From an uncultured Lachnospiraceae bacterium (GTDB lineage Bacteria; Bacillota; Clostridia; Lachnospirales; Lachnospiraceae), in NCBI GenBank assembly GCA_947169235.1, contig CAMVOY010000010.1:1-53066 (forward strand): 53,066 nucleotides of DNA, read 5' to 3'. Positions within the stretch are counted from its first letter, which is position 1. Each line of letters opens with the position of its first letter. This document shows positions 959 through 9,515 of this stretch, piece by piece. The notes beneath the pieces were generated by a model, which saw nothing but the letters and a program-made list of their open reading frames with translations, was not told the DNA's origin and ran no database searches. A program made the translations under genes and the position numbers.

Positions 959-1145
959 AAAAAATGCTCCTTGAAATTAGTTTTTTGCAAATAGTTCTGG
1001 CCGTTGATTTTCAACCTTCACCCATAGTATGCATCATATACCTATCCAAATGTCCGGACACAAAATGGCATTTTCTCAATTTTCTTAAATACGCCATTTT
1101 CCGTTGTTTTTGACAATACGTCCATCATCTCACAACAACATTTCT

Positions 1146-1174
1146 ATTATACACCATTTGATAGCAAAAGTAAA
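1146..1174 (-). promoter_or_regulatory. Candidate promoter for the PAPS-reductase-family gene
   Basis: On the minus strand, TATAAT (1146-1151) is preceded by a 17-bp spacer and a weak -35 TTTACT (1169-1174). This would give a leader of about 180 nt before the GTG at 958. The start of structured repeat copy 1 lies only about 10 bp upstream of the -35. Confidence 0.45.
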
Positions 1175-1181
1175 GAATGAA

Positions 1182-1475
1182 CCCTGTAATTGAAACATTG
1201 CCAACCCACGCAGTCAGGCTCCGTTGAAGACATGTCTGACAGACACTTGCCGAACAAGGTCAGACGAGAGGTACCTGTCGATATGCCCGTTCCCGAGGAA
1301 CATGTTTGAGCGTCAGTTTCGAAGAGCCGATAGGAGTCACGCGAGATGACGCGTGACGAGTGTCGGGTCGCACGAAACAAGCGAGTTTGACGAGGGCGGG
1401 CATGAGGTATCGACAGGTGCGTCGAGTCGACCGGCGTTCGTGCGTCTGGCAGGCATGGCTGTCAACGGAGCCGAC
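1182..1475 (+). ncRNA. Structured repeat RNA candidate, copy 1
   Basis: This is an unannotated repeat with a rich inverted-repeat structure. The core (1213-1475) is identical over 263 nt to copy 2 (3402-3664), and about 30 nt of 5' flank is also similar. Visible helices are: 1217-1227 with 1462-1472 (11 bp, extended by GTC/GAC); a long imperfect helix starting AGACATG at 1228 with its partner ending at 1461; 1274-1283 with 1408-1417 (10 bp); 1284-1289 with 1397-1402; 1316-1321 with 1373-1378; and hairpin 1336-1343/1350-1357. A diverged copy at 8747-9014 keeps these helices through paired changes. G-U pairs (for example CCGATA with TGTCGG) make the plus strand the better RNA. There is no plausible protein in it. 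I do not recognise it as a known family. Confidence 0.7.
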
Positions 1476-1558
1476 CAGTGTCGGAACATTTTTAAACCTT
1501 CTTTTGCGATCTCTGATACGGTCATTTTCTTTGCAATAACTTTTTCATTTAAGGCTCA
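1476..1558 (-). pseudogene. Possible 5' remnant of a small gene cut by structured repeat copy 1
   Basis: On the minus strand an open frame begins after a TGA near 1558 and reads about 28 protein-like residues (NEKVIAKKMTVSEIAKEG then LKMFRHW), with an ATG at 1525. The frame then enters the structured repeat, where the translation becomes repeat-derived. This suggests that the repeat edge interrupts an older helix-turn-helix-like or transposase-like gene. The fragment is too short to identify, and a chance ORF is possible. Confidence 0.25.
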
Positions 1559-1669
1559 TTTCCCCCTGACACTGTCATTATAGCGCAGGTACGTGTCCAA
1601 TATTCAGGACTCGTGAAGGTTTTTTTTCGAAAAAGGTTACTGTTCAGTGGTCGGCCAAACTGGTCATCT

Positions 1670-1784
1670 CATAACCATATTCTACCTTCCCGCAACCATC
1701 AAATTCTGCCGAATTTTCGTTGTTTTTTGCCATTTATCTCTTGACTTTTATATGGTTATGTGTTATAATTAACTCATAACCATA
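1670..1784 (+). promoter_or_regulatory. Sigma-A promoter with three operator-like half-sites
   Basis: TTGACT (1741-1746), a 17-bp spacer and TATAAT (1764-1769) form a near-consensus promoter for the 102-aa gene. The 10-mer TATGGTTATG (1751-1760, in the spacer) is the exact inverse of CATAACCATA (1775-1784, around the expected start site). A further CATAACCATA lies upstream at 1670-1679. This arrangement suggests a dimeric repressor that covers the promoter and may loop to the upstream site. Confidence 0.6.
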
Positions 1785-1799
1785 CAGGAGGTATTTCAC

Positions 1800-2108
1800 A
1801 TGGCAATTATTTTTCAACACGACAAGCGTTCCGGCATCACTTACGCTTATGATTCCAAATCTTACTACGACAAAACCACTAAAACCTCTCGTGCTAAACG
1901 TACACTGATTGGTCGTGTGGATCCCGAGACCGGTGAGATCGTTCCCACGGACGGCCGCAACAAGCGCAAAAAAGACAAAACTCTTCCTGAGGCTGTTGAC
2001 AAGGACAAACTCATTAACCGGCTCCAAGACGAAAATCGCCAATTAAAACTCCAAGTTTCCGCACTTGAAAAGGAATTGAACCGGCTCAACAAAGCTAACA
2101 AATCCTGA
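1800..2108 (+). CDS. 102-aa protein, IS1634/IS4-transposase N-terminus-like with coiled coil
   Basis: The start has AGGAGG 8 nt upstream. Residues 1-55 resemble the N-terminal segment of IS1634/IS4-type transposases (a pattern of the form SYYDK..K.SRAKRTLIGRVDPETGEIVPT, seen here in pieces). Residues 68-100 form a leucine-zipper-like coiled coil (LQDENRQLKLQVSALEKEL). No DDE catalytic core follows, and the gene stops normally just inside the right inverted repeat. It could be a stand-alone accessory or DNA-binding protein of the element, perhaps the repressor of its own promoter, or a truncated transposase that stayed expressed. The intact promoter and ribosome site argue that it is a real gene. 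Confidence 0.65.
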   Translation: MAIIFQHDKRSGITYAYDSKSYYDKTTKTSRAKRTLIGRVDPETGEIVPTDGRNKRKKDKTLPEAVDKDKLINRLQDENRQLKLQVSALEKELNRLNKANKS

Positions 2109-2150
2109 TCACCGCAGAGTGGCTAATCTCTGAACAGTAACAAAAAAGGG

Positions 2151-2182
2151 CAAAATAAAAGAACCGACCCTAAGGTCGGTTC
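2151..2182 (-). terminator. Rho-independent terminator of the Rpn-family gene
   Basis: The hairpin GAACCGACC/GGTCGGTTC (2161-2169 with 2174-2182, 4-nt loop) is followed on the minus strand by TTTTATTTTG. It lies 10 nt past the stop codon at 2193. There is no U-tract on the plus side, so it serves the minus-strand gene. Confidence 0.85.
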
Positions 2183-2192
2183 TGTCCATTAA

Positions 2193-3083
2193 TCATACTC
2201 CTGCGGAGACTTTCTTTCGAATCTCATCTGCTTTTTCCGGAGTGATTGAGCCGTCAGCAAGGAGCTCGGAAATGACATCTTCTGTGTTCTGTGTCATTTT
2301 CTGTGTGACTTGCTGCGTGACTTGCTGCGTGACTTGCTGTGTCACTTCCCTTCTGAGTTGAGCATCATGGTTCCTCATGATCGTTTCATCATCGTATAGA
2401 GTCATATACATGCGAATCACCTCCGTCTCCTTTTCTTCAAAATAATCTTTCATGATATTCTTTTCTTTACAGATTGCGATGGTATCCGTTATCGCTTTTA
2501 GGGACCTTCCGTGCATCCTTCTTTGCTCATCATATTCCTTTGTGAAAGCCACATACTGGCTGATCACGTCGTCCTCATCAGTTCCGTAAAGCATTTTTAC
2601 CCTGATCTCAAGCGGGCAGTCCTCTCCATCAAAGAAGTCTTCTATGAGAGACAGTTCTTTCGGGCGTTCTTTTCTGTCTCCCGTGTATAGGACAAACATT
2701 TCCGGTTTTGGAAGTTCGATCTTTGTGCTTCCATAGAGGTCCATCTCGTTTTCGTTTACATATCTGTGATAAGTATCTGCAAGATAGAATAGTACTCGGA
2801 TGATGATGTTTGGACTCCATGTAGTCTGTGCTTCGATCAAAATCAGTAGTCGGTCTCCAACGCGGAATCCCAGATCATTGTACAGGTGATTGACCAGGAC
2901 ATTCTCTATCGTTACGTACTTCAGATCATCTACTGTTGTTTCCTGGTCCTCCGGATGGAGTGTCCGGTACAACTTCAACAGGTTTTCCGTCATCCCGAAA
3001 AAGTCAGAGAACACACAATCCTTTATGGTGGCTTTAACTACTTTATCCTCTTTTTTCTCATGGGTTTCCTTGGTTCTATTCAT
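2193..3083 (-). CDS. Rpn-family recombination-promoting nuclease / PD-(D/E)XK nuclease transposase-like protein
   Basis: The start is ATG at 3083 (MNRTKE) rather than the upstream ATG at 3116, because AAAGGAG sits 7 nt before it. The product is 296 aa. The N-terminal half matches the Rpn/YhgA-like family: a domain opening VFSDFFG, then GDRLLILIEAQ followed by R..FY, the usual D..E.Q nuclease core with a downstream arginine. These proteins cut DNA and promote RecA-independent recombination, and they are typical of mobile or defence-related loci. Near residue 250 there is a VTQQ repeat (x3) ending in VTQKMTQ, then a short helical tail. The gene stands alone between two copies of the structured repeat. 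Its own promoter and terminator are visible. Confidence 0.8.
   Translation of the reverse strand: MNRTKETHEKKEDKVVKATIKDCVFSDFFGMTENLLKLYRTLHPEDQETTVDDLKYVTIENVLVNHLYNDLGFRVGDRLLILIEAQTTWSPNIIIRVLFYLADTYHRYVNENEMDLYGSTKIELPKPEMFVLYTGDRKERPKELSLIEDFFDGEDCPLEIRVKMLYGTDEDDVISQYVAFTKEYDEQRRMHGRSLKAITDTIAICKEKNIMKDYFEEKETEVIRMYMTLYDDETIMRNHDAQLRREVTQQVTQQVTQQVTQKMTQNTEDVISELLADGSITPEKADEIRKKVSAGV
2305..2340. repeat. 12-bp tandem repeat (three units) inside the Rpn-family gene
   Basis: GTGACTTGCTGC is repeated at 2305, 2317 and 2329 (last unit ends in T), encoding VTQQ units. The period is a multiple of three, so changes in copy number would lengthen or shorten the linker without a frameshift. Confidence 0.85.
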
Positions 3084-3098
3084 AGTTTTGCTCCTTTC

Positions 3099-3127
3099 AT
3101 GATAGCATAAAAACAAGAGTTATTCAA
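3099..3127 (-). promoter_or_regulatory. Promoter of the Rpn-family gene
   Basis: On the minus strand, TTGAAT (3122-3127), a 17-bp spacer and TATCAT (3099-3104) lie directly upstream of the ribosome site, so the leader would be very short. The stretch from 3128 to 3371 holds no gene or structure I can support. Confidence 0.55.
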
Positions 3128-3371
3128 CTGTTTCCTGGAAATAAAGTGGCTTTAAGAGAGGCTCGCATCCCGGGCGCGAACCCAAATAATGATTAATCGG
3201 AATCTTTTAGATTAACTGAAACTACTTAGGCACCCGCCAGCCAAAGAACTTGACCGGTGTGTGAGAATATAGCGGATACTCTTTACATCCATCAGATTGG
3301 ACGGAACGTATCGGCTACTAAGTGATACTACTATATCATCGATAATGTGTGTTGTCAAGACTTGATCAGCT

Positions 3372-3664
3372 CCCTGTACTTGAAACATTGCCACCCCCGC
3401 AGTCAGGCTCCGTTGAAGACATGTCTGACAGACACTTGCCGAACAAGGTCAGACGAGAGGTACCTGTCGATATGCCCGTTCCCGAGGAACATGTTTGAGC
3501 GTCAGTTTCGAAGAGCCGATAGGAGTCACGCGAGATGACGCGTGACGAGTGTCGGGTCGCACGAAACAAGCGAGTTTGACGAGGGCGGGCATGAGGTATC
3601 GACAGGTGCGTCGAGTCGACCGGCGTTCGTGCGTCTGGCAGGCATGGCTGTCAACGGAGCCGAC
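3372..3664 (+). ncRNA. Structured repeat RNA candidate, copy 2
   Basis: The core 3402-3664 is identical to copy 1 (1213-1475) over 263 nt. The 5' flank from 3372 is similar with a few changes and one deleted base. The orientation is the same as copy 1, so the two copies form direct repeats about 2.2 kb apart, flanking the 102-aa element and the Rpn gene. It lies between the Rpn gene and the terminator of the signalling operon. ORFs running through it are not gene-like. Confidence 0.7.
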
Positions 3665-3707
3665 TCGTGCGGTGCACCAACGTGTGTCCAATAATCCTGT
3701 CAGATCG

Positions 3708-3746
3708 AAAAAGAACAGCGTCCGGTATCTCCATACCGAACCTGTC
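3708..3746 (-). terminator. Terminator of the signalling operon
   Basis: On the minus strand a long hairpin pairs GGACAG with CTGTTC and TTCGGTAT with ATACCGGA around a GGAG loop. It is followed by TTTTT, and lies about 40 nt past the diguanylate cyclase stop. Confidence 0.8.
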
Positions 3747-3782
3747 CTCTCAATGTCGTATTACACATATTCCCGGAATCCG

Positions 3783-5138
3783 TCAGCCAAACGCCACGCC
3801 GCATCGACCGTTCTCCTTGACCCTGTAGAGCGCATCATCTGCGTTCTTAAACAGCGTCTCGAGTGATATCCCTTCCCTGCCGAACGATACTCCTACGCTT
3901 ATGGAGATGGCAGGGAGATTGCGGTCATCCGCCTGGAGCTCATTGTTGACTTCTACGATCTTTTTCTCGATCAGAGGCTTCATCGATGGATCTGCATGTA
4001 CCATGATGACAGCCATCTCATCGCCACCGAACCTGCATATGTAGTCGCGGTTGCGGAAACTGCTGTGGAGGATCTCGGATACTTCTTTTAGGATCCTGTC
4101 TCCTATCTCATGACCGTATGTATCGTTTATGCTCTTGAACTCATCCAGATCTATGAGAAGTAAAGCGCATGTCTCTATATCGATGTTCTCTAAGAGGAAA
4201 TCATATCCGCGTCTGTTGTAAAGGCCCGTGAGCTCATCGTGGGTTGCCTGGAAGTTCAGCTTTTCAAAACTCTTCAAACTCGTATTGTGCATAAGGTTGT
4301 ATGTCTTTGCCAGGAATCGTACCTCGTAAGCGCCCTTTAGAGGCAGGGTCTTTTCCTTGCGGATGAGCTTCACTGAGTCCTTCAGAGGGAATACGACCAG
4401 TTTTAATACGATCCAGACCAGGACGAACATAAAGACGCTCATTACGATCGTGAGCAGATGCTCGGTGAATACCTGTCCTTTGAGTCTCTCCGATATGGCT
4501 TCCTGCTCGTTTGAGAGCTCTTCGGATATGTCGCCGAGGCAGTCGTTCATATGCTGCGATATGGTATCCTTGGCCGCATGATACTTCTTGCCGAAGGCCG
4601 CCTCTATGGCTGCTTCCTTTTTCTGTGATGAGGTTTTGGCCATGTCCGCTTCGGATAGCTTGACTTCCCTTATCTCATCAGGATAGCCTGTGATGTCTTC
4701 GTGATTTGCCTCTACTGTCAGTCTCGCCGCATAGTACTCCAGGGTCTGCAGAGCCACCGACTCTTCCATGGCCGCCTTTAGATTTTTTACGGATGGCAAC
4801 CCCTCACGGTTTTTCTCCAGCTCGTTTATCGCTCTGTCACGTCTCTTGGTGACGTTTACTTCTTCGAAATAATCATCGAGATATGGTTTTTCGCCGGTCA
4901 GGACAAAACTTCTGATCTTGTCAGTCAGATAATCCGATGCGATCTGAAGCTCGTATGCATCCGAACGATACTTGCCGAGCTGTACGGTGAGCTCAGCTGT
5001 CTCGTCATTTATCTTGCTCGTCTTCGTCATCGAATAGTATAGTAAACCCGCAGTCACTACCGACAGGATGAGCATGAGGATGCTCAACCTGTATAGGTTG
5101 ATCCCGCGGTTTCTTATCCTTCTTAACGTGTTACCCAT
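3783..5138 (-). CDS. Membrane-bound diguanylate cyclase (GGDEF domain)
   Basis: The product is 451 aa. Two membrane segments (about residues 17-37 and 225-252) enclose a helical extracytoplasmic sensor of roughly 190 residues, perhaps CHASE3-like. A GGDEF domain covers about residues 290-450 and makes cyclic di-GMP from two GTP. The active-site loop reads GGDEM (371-375), with Met replacing the usual Phe, a position outside the catalytic residues. An intact I-site RNRD (362-365), five residues before the loop, predicts product inhibition. The NxxDxFKxxND-type motif is present as LDEFKSINDTYGHEIGD. It is the last gene of the operon, 22 nt after the STAS gene, linking the kinase/regulator pair to c-di-GMP signalling. 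Confidence 0.93.
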   Translation of the reverse strand: MGNTLRRIRNRGINLYRLSILMLILSVVTAGLLYYSMTKTSKINDETAELTVQLGKYRSDAYELQIASDYLTDKIRSFVLTGEKPYLDDYFEEVNVTKRRDRAINELEKNREGLPSVKNLKAAMEESVALQTLEYYAARLTVEANHEDITGYPDEIREVKLSEADMAKTSSQKKEAAIEAAFGKKYHAAKDTISQHMNDCLGDISEELSNEQEAISERLKGQVFTEHLLTIVMSVFMFVLVWIVLKLVVFPLKDSVKLIRKEKTLPLKGAYEVRFLAKTYNLMHNTSLKSFEKLNFQATHDELTGLYNRRGYDFLLENIDIETCALLLIDLDEFKSINDTYGHEIGDRILKEVSEILHSSFRNRDYICRFGGDEMAVIMVHADPSMKPLIEKKIVEVNNELQADDRNLPAISISVGVSFGREGISLETLFKNADDALYRVKENGRCGVAFG

Positions 5139-5160
5139 CTCGACTTCCTTTCAGAATCCT

Positions 5161-5466
5161 TTACTCCAAAATGTTTAATGCATTCGAAAACCCTGTCATC
5201 TCAAATACGTCCATAACAGATCCCGGGACGTTTCGCATGTTCAGCTCGCCGTCTTTTTTTCTCATATTGTTGTCCGCAGCGAGGAACACTCTGAGCCCCG
5301 CACTCGATACATACTCGATCTTTTCTATGTCCAGTATGATCTTGTCCGCAGACGGTATGATCTTCTCGATCTCCTCCATAAGCTGCGGCGATGTCACGGT
5401 GTCCAACCTGCCGTCAACATAAATTATAACCTCTGAACCGTTTACCTCTGTTTTGATGTCCAACAT
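5161..5466 (-). CDS. STAS-domain protein, anti-sigma factor antagonist type
   Basis: The start is the ATG at 5466 (MLDIK), 7 nt from AAGGAGG; the upstream ATG at 5472 is too close to that site. The 101-aa product is a single STAS domain with the SpoIIAA-type phosphorylation motif YVSSAGLRV (Ser pair at 54-55). Proteins of this type bind an anti-sigma kinase and are reset by PP2C phosphatases. No anti-sigma kinase is seen in the window, but a SpoIIE-type phosphatase is encoded at 17.8-19.9 kb, so the two may form a partner-switching pair. The gene lies between the response regulator and the diguanylate cyclase. Confidence 0.9.
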   Translation of the reverse strand: MLDIKTEVNGSEVIIYVDGRLDTVTSPQLMEEIEKIIPSADKIILDIEKIEYVSSAGLRVFLAADNNMRKKDGELNMRNVPGSVMDVFEMTGFSNALNILE

Positions 5467-5478
5467 GATCATTCCTCC

Positions 5479-6270
5479 TTATAATCTTTCTTCGATATCC
5501 CAGATGTATTCCTCGCCCCAGCTGTACTGGCTCATGAACTTGCCCGAGTACGCCCGGATCGCATCAGGATCTCCTTTCAGAAACTCATAATAATCACAGT
5601 CAACCTCGTCAACCTTTAAGCTGTATTCATTGTTCTCATTTATAAGGACCGACTCGCAGTCAATGTCCTTTAATGTCTTTTTTAAATCCATCAGGAGCAC
5701 TCGTATGTAGGACTGCTTTGACTCCCTCTCTTCGTCCTCCCACAGGACGTCACAGAGCTCCTTCCTGCTGACACTGTTCCCGTTTCTCGCAGTCAGATAC
5801 GCCAGTATCTCCCTTGATTTGGATCGTGAGAATCGTAATGGCTCCCCGCCGTACTCCGCGCGAAAATCTCCAAAGCAGGTGAGCTTTAACCGTTTCCGGT
5901 CACCTTCTCCTTCCATGGGATAGATCAGATTGTTAAGCTCCTCTCTGATATCATCCGCATCCACCGGCTTCATCAGATATCCGCCGATATGGAGTTTGTA
6001 TGCGTCAACCGCGTAGTTCGGATATGCGGTAGTCATGACAATGTTTACGTCCGGGCGCATCTTCCTCAGGTTCTCAGCTACCTCGAGGCCGCTCATCCCG
6101 GGCATCTCCACATCGAGAAACGCCAAAGAGATGTCATTCTCACTGAACACCTTGAGCGCCTCCGGACCTGATTCCGCCAAAAATATATTGGCATCCGGCA
6201 GCACCTTTTTAACTTCTTTTTCCATTCCGGTGCGCATCATCTTCTCATCATCTGCGATCAGTATCTTCAT
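5479..6270 (-). CDS. Response regulator with SARP-like winged-helix DNA-binding domain
   Basis: The product is 263 aa. Residues 1-120 form a receiver domain with acidic pocket DDE (7-9), phospho-acceptor Asp53 (FLDVEMPG) and Lys101 (MKPVD). After a short linker, residues 127-230 form an OmpR-type winged helix preceded by the LTCFGDF strand typical of SARP/BTAD regulators, and the tail (VDCDYYEF...AIRAYSGKF) looks like the first part of a bacterial transcriptional activator domain. The start overlaps the kinase 3' end by about 23 nt, showing a co-translated pair. SARP proteins bind heptamer direct repeats with 11-bp period near the -10; two such sites occur at 17.7 and 25.0 kb. Confidence 0.9.
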   Translation of the reverse strand: MKILIADDEKMMRTGMEKEVKKVLPDANIFLAESGPEALKVFSENDISLAFLDVEMPGMSGLEVAENLRKMRPDVNIVMTTAYPNYAVDAYKLHIGGYLMKPVDADDIREELNNLIYPMEGEGDRKRLKLTCFGDFRAEYGGEPLRFSRSKSREILAYLTARNGNSVSRKELCDVLWEDEERESKQSYIRVLLMDLKKTLKDIDCESVLINENNEYSLKVDEVDCDYYEFLKGDPDAIRAYSGKFMSQYSWGEEYIWDIEERL

Positions 6271-7181
6271 CCGTTACCTCTTCCGGTATGGATATGTGGA
6301 TCTTTGTCCCTTTGCCGGGCTCACTCTCCACATCCATGTTTCCATGACACATCAGTTTAAGTCGTTCTACGGTATTTCGGAGACCGATATGGATCCCTTC
6401 CTGTTGCTCCGTAACATCGAAGCCTACCCCGTCATCTTCGACATCTATATGATGATAGCCGTCCTCAAACCACGAATGTATGCGGACGTGGCCCATCGGA
6501 GGATCCTTTTTGCGGATACCGTGTCTGACAGCGTTCTCGACCAGAGTCTGCAGGCAGAATGCCGGCACCCGAAAAGCCATATCCTCGGCTTCCACATCAA
6601 AAGATACCTGATTCTCAAAACGAAACGCCTCTATCTCAAGATAACATTTGACGGTCGCGAGCTCCTTGGAGAACTCCACGCACTCTCTTTCATCGAGGAC
6701 ATCGAGGCTTCCTCTCAGATATCCGGACAGATCCTTGATCGCCTTCTTCGACCTGGGGATATCCTCCTCCAGCCCGTAGTAGATACCTGTCAGAGCATTG
6801 TAGATAAAGTGCGGTTTTATCTGGTCATACAGAAGTCGTATGTTTTCGTCGGCGATCCATTTTTCACGCTCACGCTCTCTGTCGATCACTTTTGCAGTGT
6901 AATCCATCATATGCGCGACGAATGTAAGGATCACGGCAACGCACGTGGATATACTGACCATAGATGCGCCGTATTTGAATACCTGTAGCGCCAGAGAACC
7001 CATCGGCAGTATCAAAGCCGACAGAACGGCGAACCGCTCCATACTCGTCAGATCCTTGAAGAAGTTGAGTATGAGCGTCAGTATAAGGAGCACTCCCATG
7101 ATATAGAGAAAGCTGATCACCCAGTTCCCGGGCAAACGGAAATATCTGTTGTGCTCATCAAAATCATATAAAAACGGAACG
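6248..7181 (-). pseudogene. Sensor histidine kinase, C-terminal part (split by IS)
   Basis: This is the 3' part of a LytS-type (His_kinase/HATPase) sensor kinase. From the insertion point the frame reads LYDFDEHNRYFRLPGNW, then two or three membrane segments, then the H-box IKPHFIYNAL (family phospho-His), the N-box LVENAVRHGI and the G-boxes DDGVGFD and EPGKGTKI. It gives 307 residues after the duplicated target at 7172-7181. The TTG at 7135 could in principle start a shorter product, but no good ribosome site precedes it. The other half is at 9099-9515. The native protein would be 446 aa. Confidence 0.9.
7172..7181. repeat. Target-site duplication, left copy
   Basis: AAACGGAACG occurs here and again at 9099-9108, directly outside the two ends of the insertion sequence. 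Joining the kinase halves with a single copy restores the reading frame exactly on a TTT (Phe) codon. Confidence 0.85.
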
Positions 7182-7219
7182 TTAGTGTATAATTTTTATG
7201 GGTTTTAGAAAAAAATAAA

Positions 7220-7244
7220 GGGAAGGAGGAATTTCCCCCTTCCC
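7220..7244 (+). other. Hairpin in the IS left end, upstream of the transposase
   Basis: GGGAAGG (from 7220) pairs with CCTTCCC (ending 7244), with GG/CC continuing inwards past a bulge. It lies within the leader of the transposase mRNA. Such hairpins often protect IS elements from read-through expression, though that role here is inference. Confidence 0.5.
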
Positions 7245-7306
7245 AAAAGTACAGTTATCCTTTATTATGTTATTGGGAAAACTATAGACAAAGGAGGACT
7301 GTACCC

Positions 7307-8746
7307 ATGGCTAATATTATAGCTGAAAAACTGATATCGTTCAAGACCCTGGAGCAGAGAATTTTTCAATACGTTTGTATGTTGGCGGTGGAGATCACCA
7401 GGATCCTTCTGGAGGAGTATGACAAGGATTTGATGAAAAACCGGGACAAGAAGCGTTACAAGGCAAAAGACAGCCATAAAACAACCATAAAGACGGTTTA
7501 CGGCTCGGTCACGTACAGCCGGCGCTACTACGAGGTGTTGGACGAAGCCGGTCACAGGGAGAGATATACAAGCCTTCTGGATGACGCGATGCAGATGGAT
7601 AAGATTGGCCTTATGTCATCCAATCTAGCGGAGAAAATCGCCATGATTGTTACGGAAAGCCCCTACCGTGTTGCGGCAGAAACGATCAACAGTACATGTG
7701 GACAGAGCATCAGCCACGGGGGCGTCTGGCATTTCATCCAAAAGCTTGGAGAACGAATCTGTAAGGAGGAAGAGTCATCAGTAAGCCGTGCTGATGCAGA
7801 TGAAACTAAGGGAGAAAAGGTCGTTCCAGTTTTATTTGAGGAAATGGATGGCATCATGATAAAGATGCAAAAGAACCGTAAGAAAGCGGCATCCAAGGAA
7901 ATGAAAGTAGCTACTACCTACGAAGGATGGGACGAGGAACTTGAGAAGGAAAAACGCAGTACCCTCGTTAATAAACGTACCATCGCCGGGATGGAAAACG
8001 GCGAGGAGTTCCACAAGAAGAGAGAAGCACAGATACGCGAGGTATATGCAGCGGATGAGATCAAGCAACGCATCGTAAACGGCGATGGCGGAAGCTGGAT
8101 TAATGAACCAAATGATCCGGATGCTATCATTCAACTGGATAGATTTCATATCTACAAGGCGATAAAAAAGTACATAGGCGATAAAAGGATGATCTCAGAG
8201 ATTGAGGATTTGTTCCATCAGGAAAAATATGATGAGATGCTTGAGTCCATCGTAGTATACGCCGACAGTGTAGTGACCAACGATGAGGGTGATAAAAGAA
8301 GCAGGGAAGCCATGAAACTCTATAAATACCTGTTTGATAACAGAAATGCACTCAAGCCGTATCAGTCATACGAAAATAGGATTCCGGAACCGCCGGATGG
8401 AATAATATACAAGAACATGGGAGTGCAGGAAAACCAGAACTGCACGCTGATAACGATGCGCATGAAACACCGTCGGATGAGATGGTCAGAAAACGGTGCC
8501 AATAACATGGCCAAGGTTCTGTATCGAAAGGAAAACAGAGAACTGGGAGAGACCATTGATCGATACATGGACGGACTGATCTTTTTGGAACACACCTCGA
8601 AGGTGCTGGATGTTTTGAGTGCCGGAAGAGCGCCCAAAAGGGATGGCAAAGGGAATCCGTATGTTGATGTGATCAATTATAAGATGCCGATCCTGGAAGC
8701 GATGCAAACCGCATCCAGGCGTGCGTTCAGAAGGGCATTTGGATGA
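7307..8746 (+). CDS. ISLre2 family transposase (UPF0236)
   Basis: The start is preceded by AAAGGAGGA at 8 nt spacing. The 479-aa length is normal for the family, and no frameshift or internal stop is present, so the gene looks intact. Recognisable family features are the N-terminal KDSHKTTIKTVYGSVTYSRRYY segment, LLDDAMQMDKIGLMSSNLAEKIA, the EEMDGIMIKMQ strand, the GDGGSWI and DRFHIYKAIKKY stretches, and the C-terminal MRMKHRRMRWSENGANNMAK block. Its TGA stop (8744-8746) directly abuts the first base of structured repeat copy 3, so the RNA would be part of the transposase transcript or processed from it. Confidence 0.9.
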   Translation: MANIIAEKLISFKTLEQRIFQYVCMLAVEITRILLEEYDKDLMKNRDKKRYKAKDSHKTTIKTVYGSVTYSRRYYEVLDEAGHRERYTSLLDDAMQMDKIGLMSSNLAEKIAMIVTESPYRVAAETINSTCGQSISHGGVWHFIQKLGERICKEEESSVSRADADETKGEKVVPVLFEEMDGIMIKMQKNRKKAASKEMKVATTYEGWDEELEKEKRSTLVNKRTIAGMENGEEFHKKREAQIREVYAADEIKQRIVNGDGGSWINEPNDPDAIIQLDRFHIYKAIKKYIGDKRMISEIEDLFHQEKYDEMLESIVVYADSVVTNDEGDKRSREAMKLYKYLFDNRNALKPYQSYENRIPEPPDGIIYKNMGVQENQNCTLITMRMKHRRMRWSENGANNMAKVLYRKENRELGETIDRYMDGLIFLEHTSKVLDVLSAGRAPKRDGKGNPYVDVINYKMPILEAMQTASRRAFRRAFG

Positions 8747-9014
8747 TGCCCGGGAGATGTTGCAGACATGAACGGCAGACACTTGCCGAACAAGGTCAGA
8801 CGAGAGGTGCCTGTCGATAGGTCCGTTCCCGAGGAACACTGTTTGAGCGTCGGCTGCGAAGAGCCGATAGGAGTCACGCGAGATGACGCGTGACGAGTGT
8901 CGGGTCGCACGCAGCAAGCGAGTTTGACGAGGGCGGACCTGAGGGATCGACAGGTGCATCAAGTCGACCGGCGTTCGTGCGTCTGACGGTCATGGATGGC
9001 AACAAGACCGGGCA
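8747..9014 (+). ncRNA. Structured repeat RNA candidate, copy 3 (inside the IS)
   Basis: This copy is homologous to copies 1 and 2 but diverged, with helices kept. The closing stem is TGCCCGG (8747-8753) with CCGGGCA (9008-9014), then TGTTGC (8758-8763) with GCAACA (8999-9004); these replace the different closing sequence of copies 1/2. Compensated changes include GGTCCG/CGGACC (8820-8825 with 8934-8939) for TGCCCG/CGGGCA, and GCTGCG/CGCAGC (8853-8858 with 8910-8915) for GTTTCG/CGAAAC. Loop and hairpin sequences such as GTTCC-CGA-GGAAC and GTCACGCG/CGCGTGAC are unchanged. It starts at the base after the transposase stop codon and runs in the same direction. Confidence 0.75.
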
Positions 9015-9098
9015 CTACAAATCCCGTTACTAATCCACCCTGCGAGAATGGCATAAAAAAGGAGCTGGAGAAAAAACCCATAAACACTTGACACAATC

Positions 9099-9108
9099 AA
9101 ACGGAACG
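9099..9108. repeat. Target-site duplication, right copy
   Basis: The same AAACGGAACG as at 7172-7181. On the minus strand it encodes the VPF of the kinase sensor region. Confidence 0.85.
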
Positions 9109-9515
9109 AACAGATTGATCATCACCATCAGGACACCGATGATTCCGATGACGTACTCGATCATCTTCCAGTTTTTGATGGAAACACCTACGCGCTCCTC
9201 AATAAGGCCCGCAAAATAAGAAACTCCCGAGACGATCACCAGATATCCCATCGCAAACACAAGGAGATTTGCGATTCTGACAATAAAAAATGCCACTGTC
9301 CCCTCTTGTCCGCGAAATCCTATGGCAAACACGTCCGAGAGAAGCAGCAGCCCGTCTGCTATGAGAAATCGGATCAGCCCATCTGCCTTTTTTCTATCAG
9401 CCCATCTGGTCTGCGAGATCACTATGATAGCTACAAGGCAGAAAAATGCTCCCCAACCTTCGATGACCAGCTGTATTATCCTAGAGAGCTCCGGCTCGTT
9501 TCCGATCCCGTTCAT
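9099..9515 (-). pseudogene. Sensor histidine kinase, N-terminal part (split by IS)
   Basis: The ATG at 9515 has GGAAGGAG 6 nt upstream. The 139 codons to the insertion point encode four hydrophobic segments of a membrane sensor (MNGIGNEPEL... to ...INLFVPF). Past 9099 the frame enters the IS and ends after about 22 foreign residues, so a truncated membrane fragment without kinase core would be made. The gene follows the PrsW-like protease by 19 nt. Excision of 7172-9098 would rejoin it with the C-terminal part as a 446-aa protein. Until then, the response regulator has lost its cognate kinase unless another one serves it. Confidence 0.9.

What the first reader, a model, noticed from the sequence alone, without database searches (positions are those of the whole stretch)
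1182..9014. Three copies of an apparently undescribed ~265-nt structured RNA, with covariation
Copies 1 (1182-1475) and 2 (3372-3664) share a 263-nt identical core; copy 3 (8747-9014) is diverged. Across the pair the helices are kept by paired changes: TGCCCG/CGGGCA becomes GGTCCG/CGGACC, GTTTCG/CGAAAC becomes GCTGCG/CGCAGC, and the closing stem is replaced wholesale by another perfect stem. In the long helix after the closing stem, a T-A pair becomes C-G and an A-G mismatch is inverted to G-A. G-U pairs (CCGATA/TGTCGG; one T-G turning to A-T) fit plus-strand RNA only. The multi-helix layout is like that of large ornate bacterial RNAs, but I do not recognise the family.
Basis: partly seen in the sequence, partly recalled or inferred. 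Interest (0 to 1): 0.88.

Follow-up and report, generated by a model that had tools for sequence, protein, structure and literature searches.

The report
Mobile hairpin elements with shared cap
The three copies belong to a large, apparently undescribed family of small mobile elements that fold into one long hairpin; the tip of the hairpin is nearly the same in bacteria of several phyla, while its arms change in matched pairs.

Summary
In detail: copies 1 and 2 share 267 identical bases, copy 3 is diverged, the helices change in matched pairs, and no Rfam family reaches its threshold.

The reading changes. The fold is one long rod, not an ornate multi-helix RNA. The own genome has 11 copies. 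The cap (GAGGA..TGTTTGAGCG / AGCGAGTT) recurs in records titled as seven phyla, with 179 exact hits in 20 of 395 genomes of one phylum against 0 for the reversed pattern.

The family is mobile. It is present in 3 and absent in 22 of 26 measurable rho-rpmE sites, and copy 3 is a passenger in one ISLre2 lineage.

Best reading: a foldback, MITE-like family with a conserved cap. How the window's own copies move, and whether they are transcribed, is not shown.

The parts
1182..1475 (+). Copy 1, stand-alone long hairpin; bases 1209-1475 are identical to copy 2; cap at 1292-1396
3372..3684 (+). Copy 2, stand-alone long hairpin; identical stretch 3398-3664; arms reach slightly further out than in copy 1; cap at 3481-3585
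8747..9014 (+). Copy 3, diverged hairpin directly after the stop codon of the ISLre2 transposase; cap at 8828-8933
7182..9099 (+). ISLre2-family insertion sequence that carries copy 3 as passenger
   Evidence: NCBIfam NF033529 above cut-off (231.5 against 200 bits) and Pfam UPF0236; ends and flanking AACGGAACG read in the sequence
7307..8746 (+). ISLre2 transposase gene, 479 codons
7173..7181 (.). AACGGAACG, left copy of the duplicated target of the insertion sequence
9100..9108 (.). AACGGAACG, right copy of the duplicated target

Best explanation
The copies are non-autonomous, MITE-like foldback elements. Almost the whole element folds into a single long hairpin. Its tip (cap) holds a conserved motif, stem-GAGGA(C)-TGTTTGAGCG-[one base or an inserted hairpin]-AGCGAGTT(CCGCA)-stem, with what looks like a tandem G.A step and a one-sided bulge; the arms vary freely but stay paired. 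Inferred: transposases acting in trans on the element ends move it (typical of MITEs with target duplications), and the folded cap strand, as RNA or as single-stranded DNA, is needed for some step of spread or survival, which is why pairing is restored while arms diverge. Copy 3 moves with its ISLre2 carrier. The transposase for copies 1 and 2 is unknown.
For: 11 copies in the own genome; copies in 9 of 61 related genomes, all 9 in the own genus. Pattern in genome contigs: 31 stretches in records titled as several phyla; 14 of 15 of their genomes re-hit by model R2, 1 to 35 matches each. 179 exact core hits in 20 of 395 genomes, reversed-pattern control 0. Target duplications: 5 of 6 G433/G397 copies match at 7 or 8 of 8 bases, mismatched flanks 0 of 30; 4 of 9 G238 copies match at all 7 bases, mismatched flanks 1 of 72 at 6 or more. 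rho-rpmE: element in G000, G011, G002; 22 of 26 measurable spacers are short without it. ISLre2 of G009 carries it after the stop codon, that of G005 does not. Covariation; in 88 pairs of related copies 432 double changes against 223 single ones. Strand: 101 of 115 copies fold better on the cap strand, arms alone 75 of 115; isolated G.A/A.G mismatches 26 against C.T/T.C 3, G.U 35 against A.C 15.
Against: No target duplication or clear terminal repeat was found for the window's own copies or others of the genus (by eye), so MITE ends are shown only in distant relatives. In one search the flanks of 4 of 9 G238 copies match at 3 or fewer of 7 bases in the fixed register (a fifth at 5), and ends were found in only 6 of 10 G433/G397 copies. 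No partner gene was found: no protein recurs beside the element except at orthologous sites and in common families. The loose G.U count is not significant. Several phyla rest on metagenome-assembled genomes, where misbinning is possible, and on plasmid hits that are weak one by one (E 0.03 to 1). Homology of the caps across phyla, rather than convergence on a short motif, is inferred.
Confidence: 0.6

Rival explanations
1. A free-standing functional non-coding RNA, duplicated several times and working in trans.
For: Strong covariation, plus-strand preference, internal loops kept as mismatches between copies (424 cells), a wobble-rich step (columns 77-78 with 192-193) in most of 11 sequences.
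Against: Copy number from 1 to 75 per genome with patchy presence, insertion in an IS and target duplications are those of mobile elements. Only 9 of 37 genomes of the genus have a match. No transcript data.
Confidence: 0.14
2. A cis-acting hairpin for the host: terminator or 3'-end stabiliser recruited after insertion.
For: Several copies start right after stop codons (copy 3, rho, ISLre2 of G009) or lie between convergent genes.
Against: Other copies lie between divergent genes (C17:9839), upstream of a gene (copy 1) or run against the flanking gene (copy 2). No constant gene, side or orientation. A terminator role would not need the same cap in many phyla.
Confidence: 0.14
3. The paired changes are mutational: template switching within imperfect palindromes copies one arm into the other, so covariation needs no function of the fold.
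For: Arms are replaced in blocks and can be perfect and unique to a copy (L047, L059, L063, L066). Such a process is known for quasi-palindromes (recalled, no call).
Against: The process would erase mismatches, yet 424 cells are mismatched in both members of a pair, and it has no strand, while mismatch types and folding energies differ by strand.
Confidence: 0.1
4. An integral part of ISLre2, for example an RNA that its transposase needs.
For: Copy 3 and the ISLre2 of G009 both have it between stop codon and right end.
Against: The ISLre2 of G005 (61% identical transposase) has no such hairpin; most copies are not beside an ISLre2: the own genome has one full transposase match and 11 hairpins.
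Confidence: 0.02

Closest known systems
Bacterial MITEs and foldback repeats (ERIC, bcr1 and similar)
   Same: Short, non-coding, dispersed, intergenic, folding as a whole into a hairpin; bcr1 reaches 130 copies in one strain (passages of PMC6542083); 57 of 92 stem-loop repeat families share a predicted structure (passages of PMC2267715).
   Different: Those families are, as far as those passages and recall go, host-group specific. Here one cap motif recurs in several phyla with unrelated outer arms, and terminal repeats differ between hosts.
REP / REPIN elements moved by RAYT transposases
   Same: Intergenic palindromes, single or as divergent pairs (C33, G008:C404, L067 here); complementary stem changes and G-T pairing are reported for GTAG REPs too (passages of PMC3733652).
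   Different: REPs are 20-40 bp (listing); these are about 240-310. No Y1_Tnp gene was found in the 9 element-bearing genomes of the genus.
Large ornate RNAs (OLE, GOLLD, ROOL)
   Same: Long, structured, bacterial, intergenic.
   Different: One rod rather than many helices; no Rfam match. That these three are Rfam families is recalled.
ISLre2 insertion sequences
   Same: Carrier of copy 3.
   Different: The hairpin is a passenger; a related ISLre2 lacks it.

Membership tests
Any Rfam 15 family | Covariance-model score at or above the family's gathering score | tested here: not met
   Window 0 matches; 1000-9200 down to E 10, none over the copies; 18 relatives' loci only a tRNA; 12 loci to E 1, seven matches, all below gathering, three of them over long hairpins and of microRNA-precursor families
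MITE | Terminal inverted repeats with a target duplication of fixed length | tested here: met
   Met in relatives: G433/G397 5 of 6 with 8-bp, G238 4 of 9 with 7-bp duplications
MITE | The same for the window's own copies | tested here: inconclusive
   Flanks of copies 1-3 and related copies compared by eye, no duplication seen
MITE | Short, no transposase gene, several copies | tested here: met
   About 240-310 nt, 11 copies in the own genome; ORFs over the copies are short antisense frames only
MITE | A related autonomous element with the same ends in the genome | not tested
REP/RAYT | RAYT (Y1_Tnp, PF01797) gene in the genome | tested here: not met
   0 of 9 element-bearing genomes of the genus; 20 of 61 searched genomes have one
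REP/RAYT | GTAG or similar tetranucleotide at the foot of a 20-40 bp palindrome | not tested
   Not searched for; the size differs
Large ornate RNA | Many helices joined by multi-branch loops | tested here: not met
   MFE and consensus folds are unbranched rods in the conserved part
Component of ISLre2 | Present in ISLre2 elements generally | tested here: not met
   Present in G000 and G009, absent in G005; only these three full-length matches in 39 genomes
Structured RNA | Transcribed | not testable with these tools
   No expression data on hand

The most novel reading that the evidence does not exclude
The cap is a portable functional nucleic-acid module that has spread through at least seven bacterial phyla: it is found in elements with unrelated ends (two kinds of terminal repeat with 7- or 8-bp duplications, an ISLre2 passenger, stand-alone hairpins), so it is selected for itself, as a folded single strand recognised by something common to bacteria, and transposases are interchangeable vehicles. 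The arms would be remade in matched pairs around a constant cap.
Probability: 0.25. Interest if true: 0.88.

Novelty: new variant of a known kind. Interest (0 to 1): 0.66.

Why it matters
If the cap is one homologous module, it is among the most widely shared non-coding mobile motifs in bacteria, and it is missing from Rfam. It would give a test case for why long hairpins persist in compact genomes, and it warns that strong covariation alone, in multi-copy intergenic hairpins, does not prove a housekeeping RNA. The cap is short enough to be tested directly for protein binding.

Tried and rejected
Rfam: no family. RAYT mobilisation: rejected for this genus. Viruses: the pattern in two spacings gave 0 in viral contigs and one short match, L077, that does not continue as the element over the 700 bases read. 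Plasmids: copy 2 gave no match; two 36-base cap queries gave 36 and 11 records at E up to 10, some inside coding genes and probably chance; of the seven loci taken from them all seven fold as hairpins around the cap. L070 is probably chance: its genome has no R2 match. Shared neighbour genes: none beyond orthologous sites and common families. Insertion into terminators as the source of unique arms: not needed at the ecfA1-ecfA2 site, where relatives have abutting genes. A kink-turn in the cap was considered from the tandem G.A and the one-sided bulge; the bulge is longer than the usual three bases (recalled), so it stays a lead. Strong claims of strand specificity: the loose count (76 G.U to 58 A.C, p 0.14) does not support them; the strict one does moderately (p 0.007), 44 of 86 non-redundant copies being left out there for weak arms, and 8 of 25 in the own genus are A.C (p 0.11). 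The sets come from a loose pattern and are related sequences, so the p values are optimistic. Distribution in the own phylum is thin: R2 hits 5 of 398 genomes, the own one included, under stricter filters.

Literature: ten searches, five by sequence strings, showed no description of the cap in the listings; the library lacks most subscription journals. Passages only were read of PMC3733652, PMC2267715 and PMC6542083; other papers were seen only as listings.
Full report
OBSERVATION. The three copies are real and at the stated places. Copies 1 and 2 share an identical run of 267 bases, 1209-1475 and 3398-3664. Copy 3 is 90% identical to copy 2 over 8759-9003. Folding energies are far below dinucleotide shuffles: z -9.47 for copy 2 and -8.78 for copy 3, none of the shuffles as good. 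The shape is one long interrupted rod, not a set of joined helices.

COPY 3 IS A PASSENGER. Copy 3 lies between the stop codon of a transposase (7307-8746) and the right end of an insertion sequence at 7182-9099, flanked by AACGGAACG at 7173-7181 and 9100-9108. The transposase is ISLre2 family by NCBIfam (231.5 bits, cut-off 200) and UPF0236 by Pfam. Of 39 genomes of the genus searched with it, 6 had a match at E 1e-30 or better, three of them full length. In G009 (80% identical) a hairpin of the same type follows the stop codon; in G005 (61% identical) it is absent and the right end follows within about 110 bases. So it was gained by one ISLre2 lineage and is not part of the family.

COPIES IN THE GENOME AND GENUS. 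BLAST with copy 2 gave nine matches in the own genome. A covariance model of the cap, R1, gave 11, and matches in 9 of 61 genomes, all nine in the own genus, where 37 genomes including the own one were searched; none of 24 genomes of other genera. They fall, by my grouping, into a long type (the window's copies), a shorter type and a third type. Two types also occur as divergent neighbours (C33; G008:C404).

OTHER PHYLA. A gapped cap pattern found 31 stretches in genome contigs, where I estimate about one by chance; the records are titled Lachnospiraceae, Bacteroidaceae, Actinomycetota, Kaiserbacteria, Nitrospirae, Proteobacteria, Anaerolineales and others. Most fold as a long hairpin with the cap at the tip. 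A second model, R2, re-hit 14 of 15 of these genomes, with 1 to 35 matches; the Anaerolineales one was the miss. Plasmid searches with 36-base caps added Fusobacteriota (Ilyobacter, 12 places at E up to 10), Butyrivibrio, Parabacteroides, Aureibacter and Variovorax; seven loci were read and all seven fold around the cap. By record titles that makes seven phyla: Bacillota, Bacteroidota, Actinomycetota, Patescibacteria (Kaiserbacteria), Nitrospirae, Proteobacteria and Fusobacteriota. In 395 genomes of the phylum of G068, whose record is titled Proteobacteria, the exact 19-base core occurs 179 times in 20 genomes (75 in one), the reversed pattern never. In the own phylum R2 hits 5 of 398 genomes. 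The distribution is patchy and multi-copy.

THE CAP. In Nitrospirae and other genomes the tip is TGTTTGAGCG-N-AGCGAGTT, closed by one base; in Lachnospiraceae and Bacteroidaceae that base is replaced by a further hairpin. On 26 caps 83.9% of cells pair, against 69.9% in shuffles, 0 of 500 as high; slid partners give 24-48%; 12 of 16 pairs change on both sides. One G-C inside the otherwise constant motif becomes A-U in three sequences. Eleven hairpins of the genus give 73 pairs, 48 with a change on both sides. In 88 pairs of related copies 432 paired cells changed on both sides, 223 on one side only, and 424 are mismatched in both, so internal loops are kept.

WHICH STRAND. For the window's copies the plus strand folds better than its complement: -145.7 against -116.9, -156.0 against -129.3, -141.0 against -120.1 kcal/mol. 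Over 115 non-redundant copies the cap strand is better in 101; with the cap left out in 75 (p 0.0014). Isolated mismatches within helices of 42 copies are G.U 35, A.C 15, G.A/A.G 26, C.T/T.C 3. A looser count gives 76 G.U to 58 A.C, not significant. Copies are related, so these p values are optimistic. The result favours folding of one strand, as RNA or as single-stranded DNA; it does not tell which.

MOBILITY. Between rho and rpmE, 30 loci of the genus were read; 26 could be measured. The element is in G000, G011 and G002, G016 has another hairpin, and 22 have a short spacer. Between ecfA1 and ecfA2 only G000 of 11 genomes has it; at least four others have unrelated hairpins and several have abutting genes. 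In G433 and G397 five of six copies with both ends found (10 fetched) have an 8-bp duplication at 7 or 8 of 8 bases, against 0 of 30 mismatched flanks; ends GTAACTATTCAGC. In G238 four of nine (10 fetched) have an exact 7-bp duplication, against 1 of 72 at 6 or more; ends YTCAACTTTCGACTTTCAT. Those were 7 of 75, 3 of 29 and 10 of 20 listed copies. For the window's copies no duplication was seen.

MECHANISM. I take these as MITE-like foldback elements moved in trans by transposases that recognise their ends; shown for the relatives with target duplications, inferred for the window. Why the cap is constant while ends and arms are not is the open point. The most likely reason is that the folded cap strand is needed at some step; a mutational origin of the pairing is disfavoured by the kept mismatches and the strand bias. 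RAYT enzymes are excluded for this genus (0 of 9 element-bearing genomes). No neighbouring gene recurs.

NOVELTY. No Rfam family reaches its threshold and ten literature searches, five by sequence, showed no description in their listings. Foldback and MITE repeats are a known kind; a cap shared across phyla with unrelated ends is, as far as I could search, a new variant.

Noticed in passing
window 1636-2141: A small element with ends GTTACTGTTCAG / CTGAACAGTAAC around one 102-codon frame (1800-2108) without Pfam or NCBIfam match; it lies between copies 1 and 2.
   Followed up: partly
window 6248-7135 and 9030-9515, minus strand: The ISLre2 element appears to split a histidine-kinase-like membrane protein gene; the 5' part of the gene lies at 9030-9515 and the rest at 6248-7135.
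   Followed up: no
window 960-1180 and L003 660-900: About 220 bases upstream of two different genes are similar to each other; in the window the similarity runs up to the start of copy 1.
   Followed up: partly
L003 910-1500: A stretch of about 590 bases bounded by CCCTATAC on both sides, directly before the hairpin copy on contig C57; looks like another insertion.
   Followed up: no
L204, L205, L207, L209 (ecfA1-ecfA2 site in G011, G002, G027, G008): Four different hairpin inserts unrelated to this family at the same operon site. In at least three the outer arm contains the last codon or codons and the stop of the upstream gene, with an inverted copy on the far side, as at rho in G000.
   Followed up: partly
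L168 (G011 rho-rpmE) against L204: The same second kind of hairpin occurs at both sites of G011, with flanking bases of the ecfA1 end carried along to the rho site.
   Followed up: partly
L163 and L164 (Butyrivibrio fibrisolvens plasmid): Hairpins with arms of roughly 100 base pairs, almost fully paired, whose outermost bases differ between the two copies in matched pairs.
   Followed up: no
L071, L073, L120-L138, L160-L166: A second hairpin with TTTTGGTTACTTTT-like arms follows the cap hairpin in several phyla, its arms also varying together; possibly a terminator.
   Followed up: no
L027, L035, L041 (G012): Hairpin copies at contig ends; in L027 the transposase frame before it looks internally deleted, which suggests a shortened ISLre2 derivative in several copies.
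   Followed up: no
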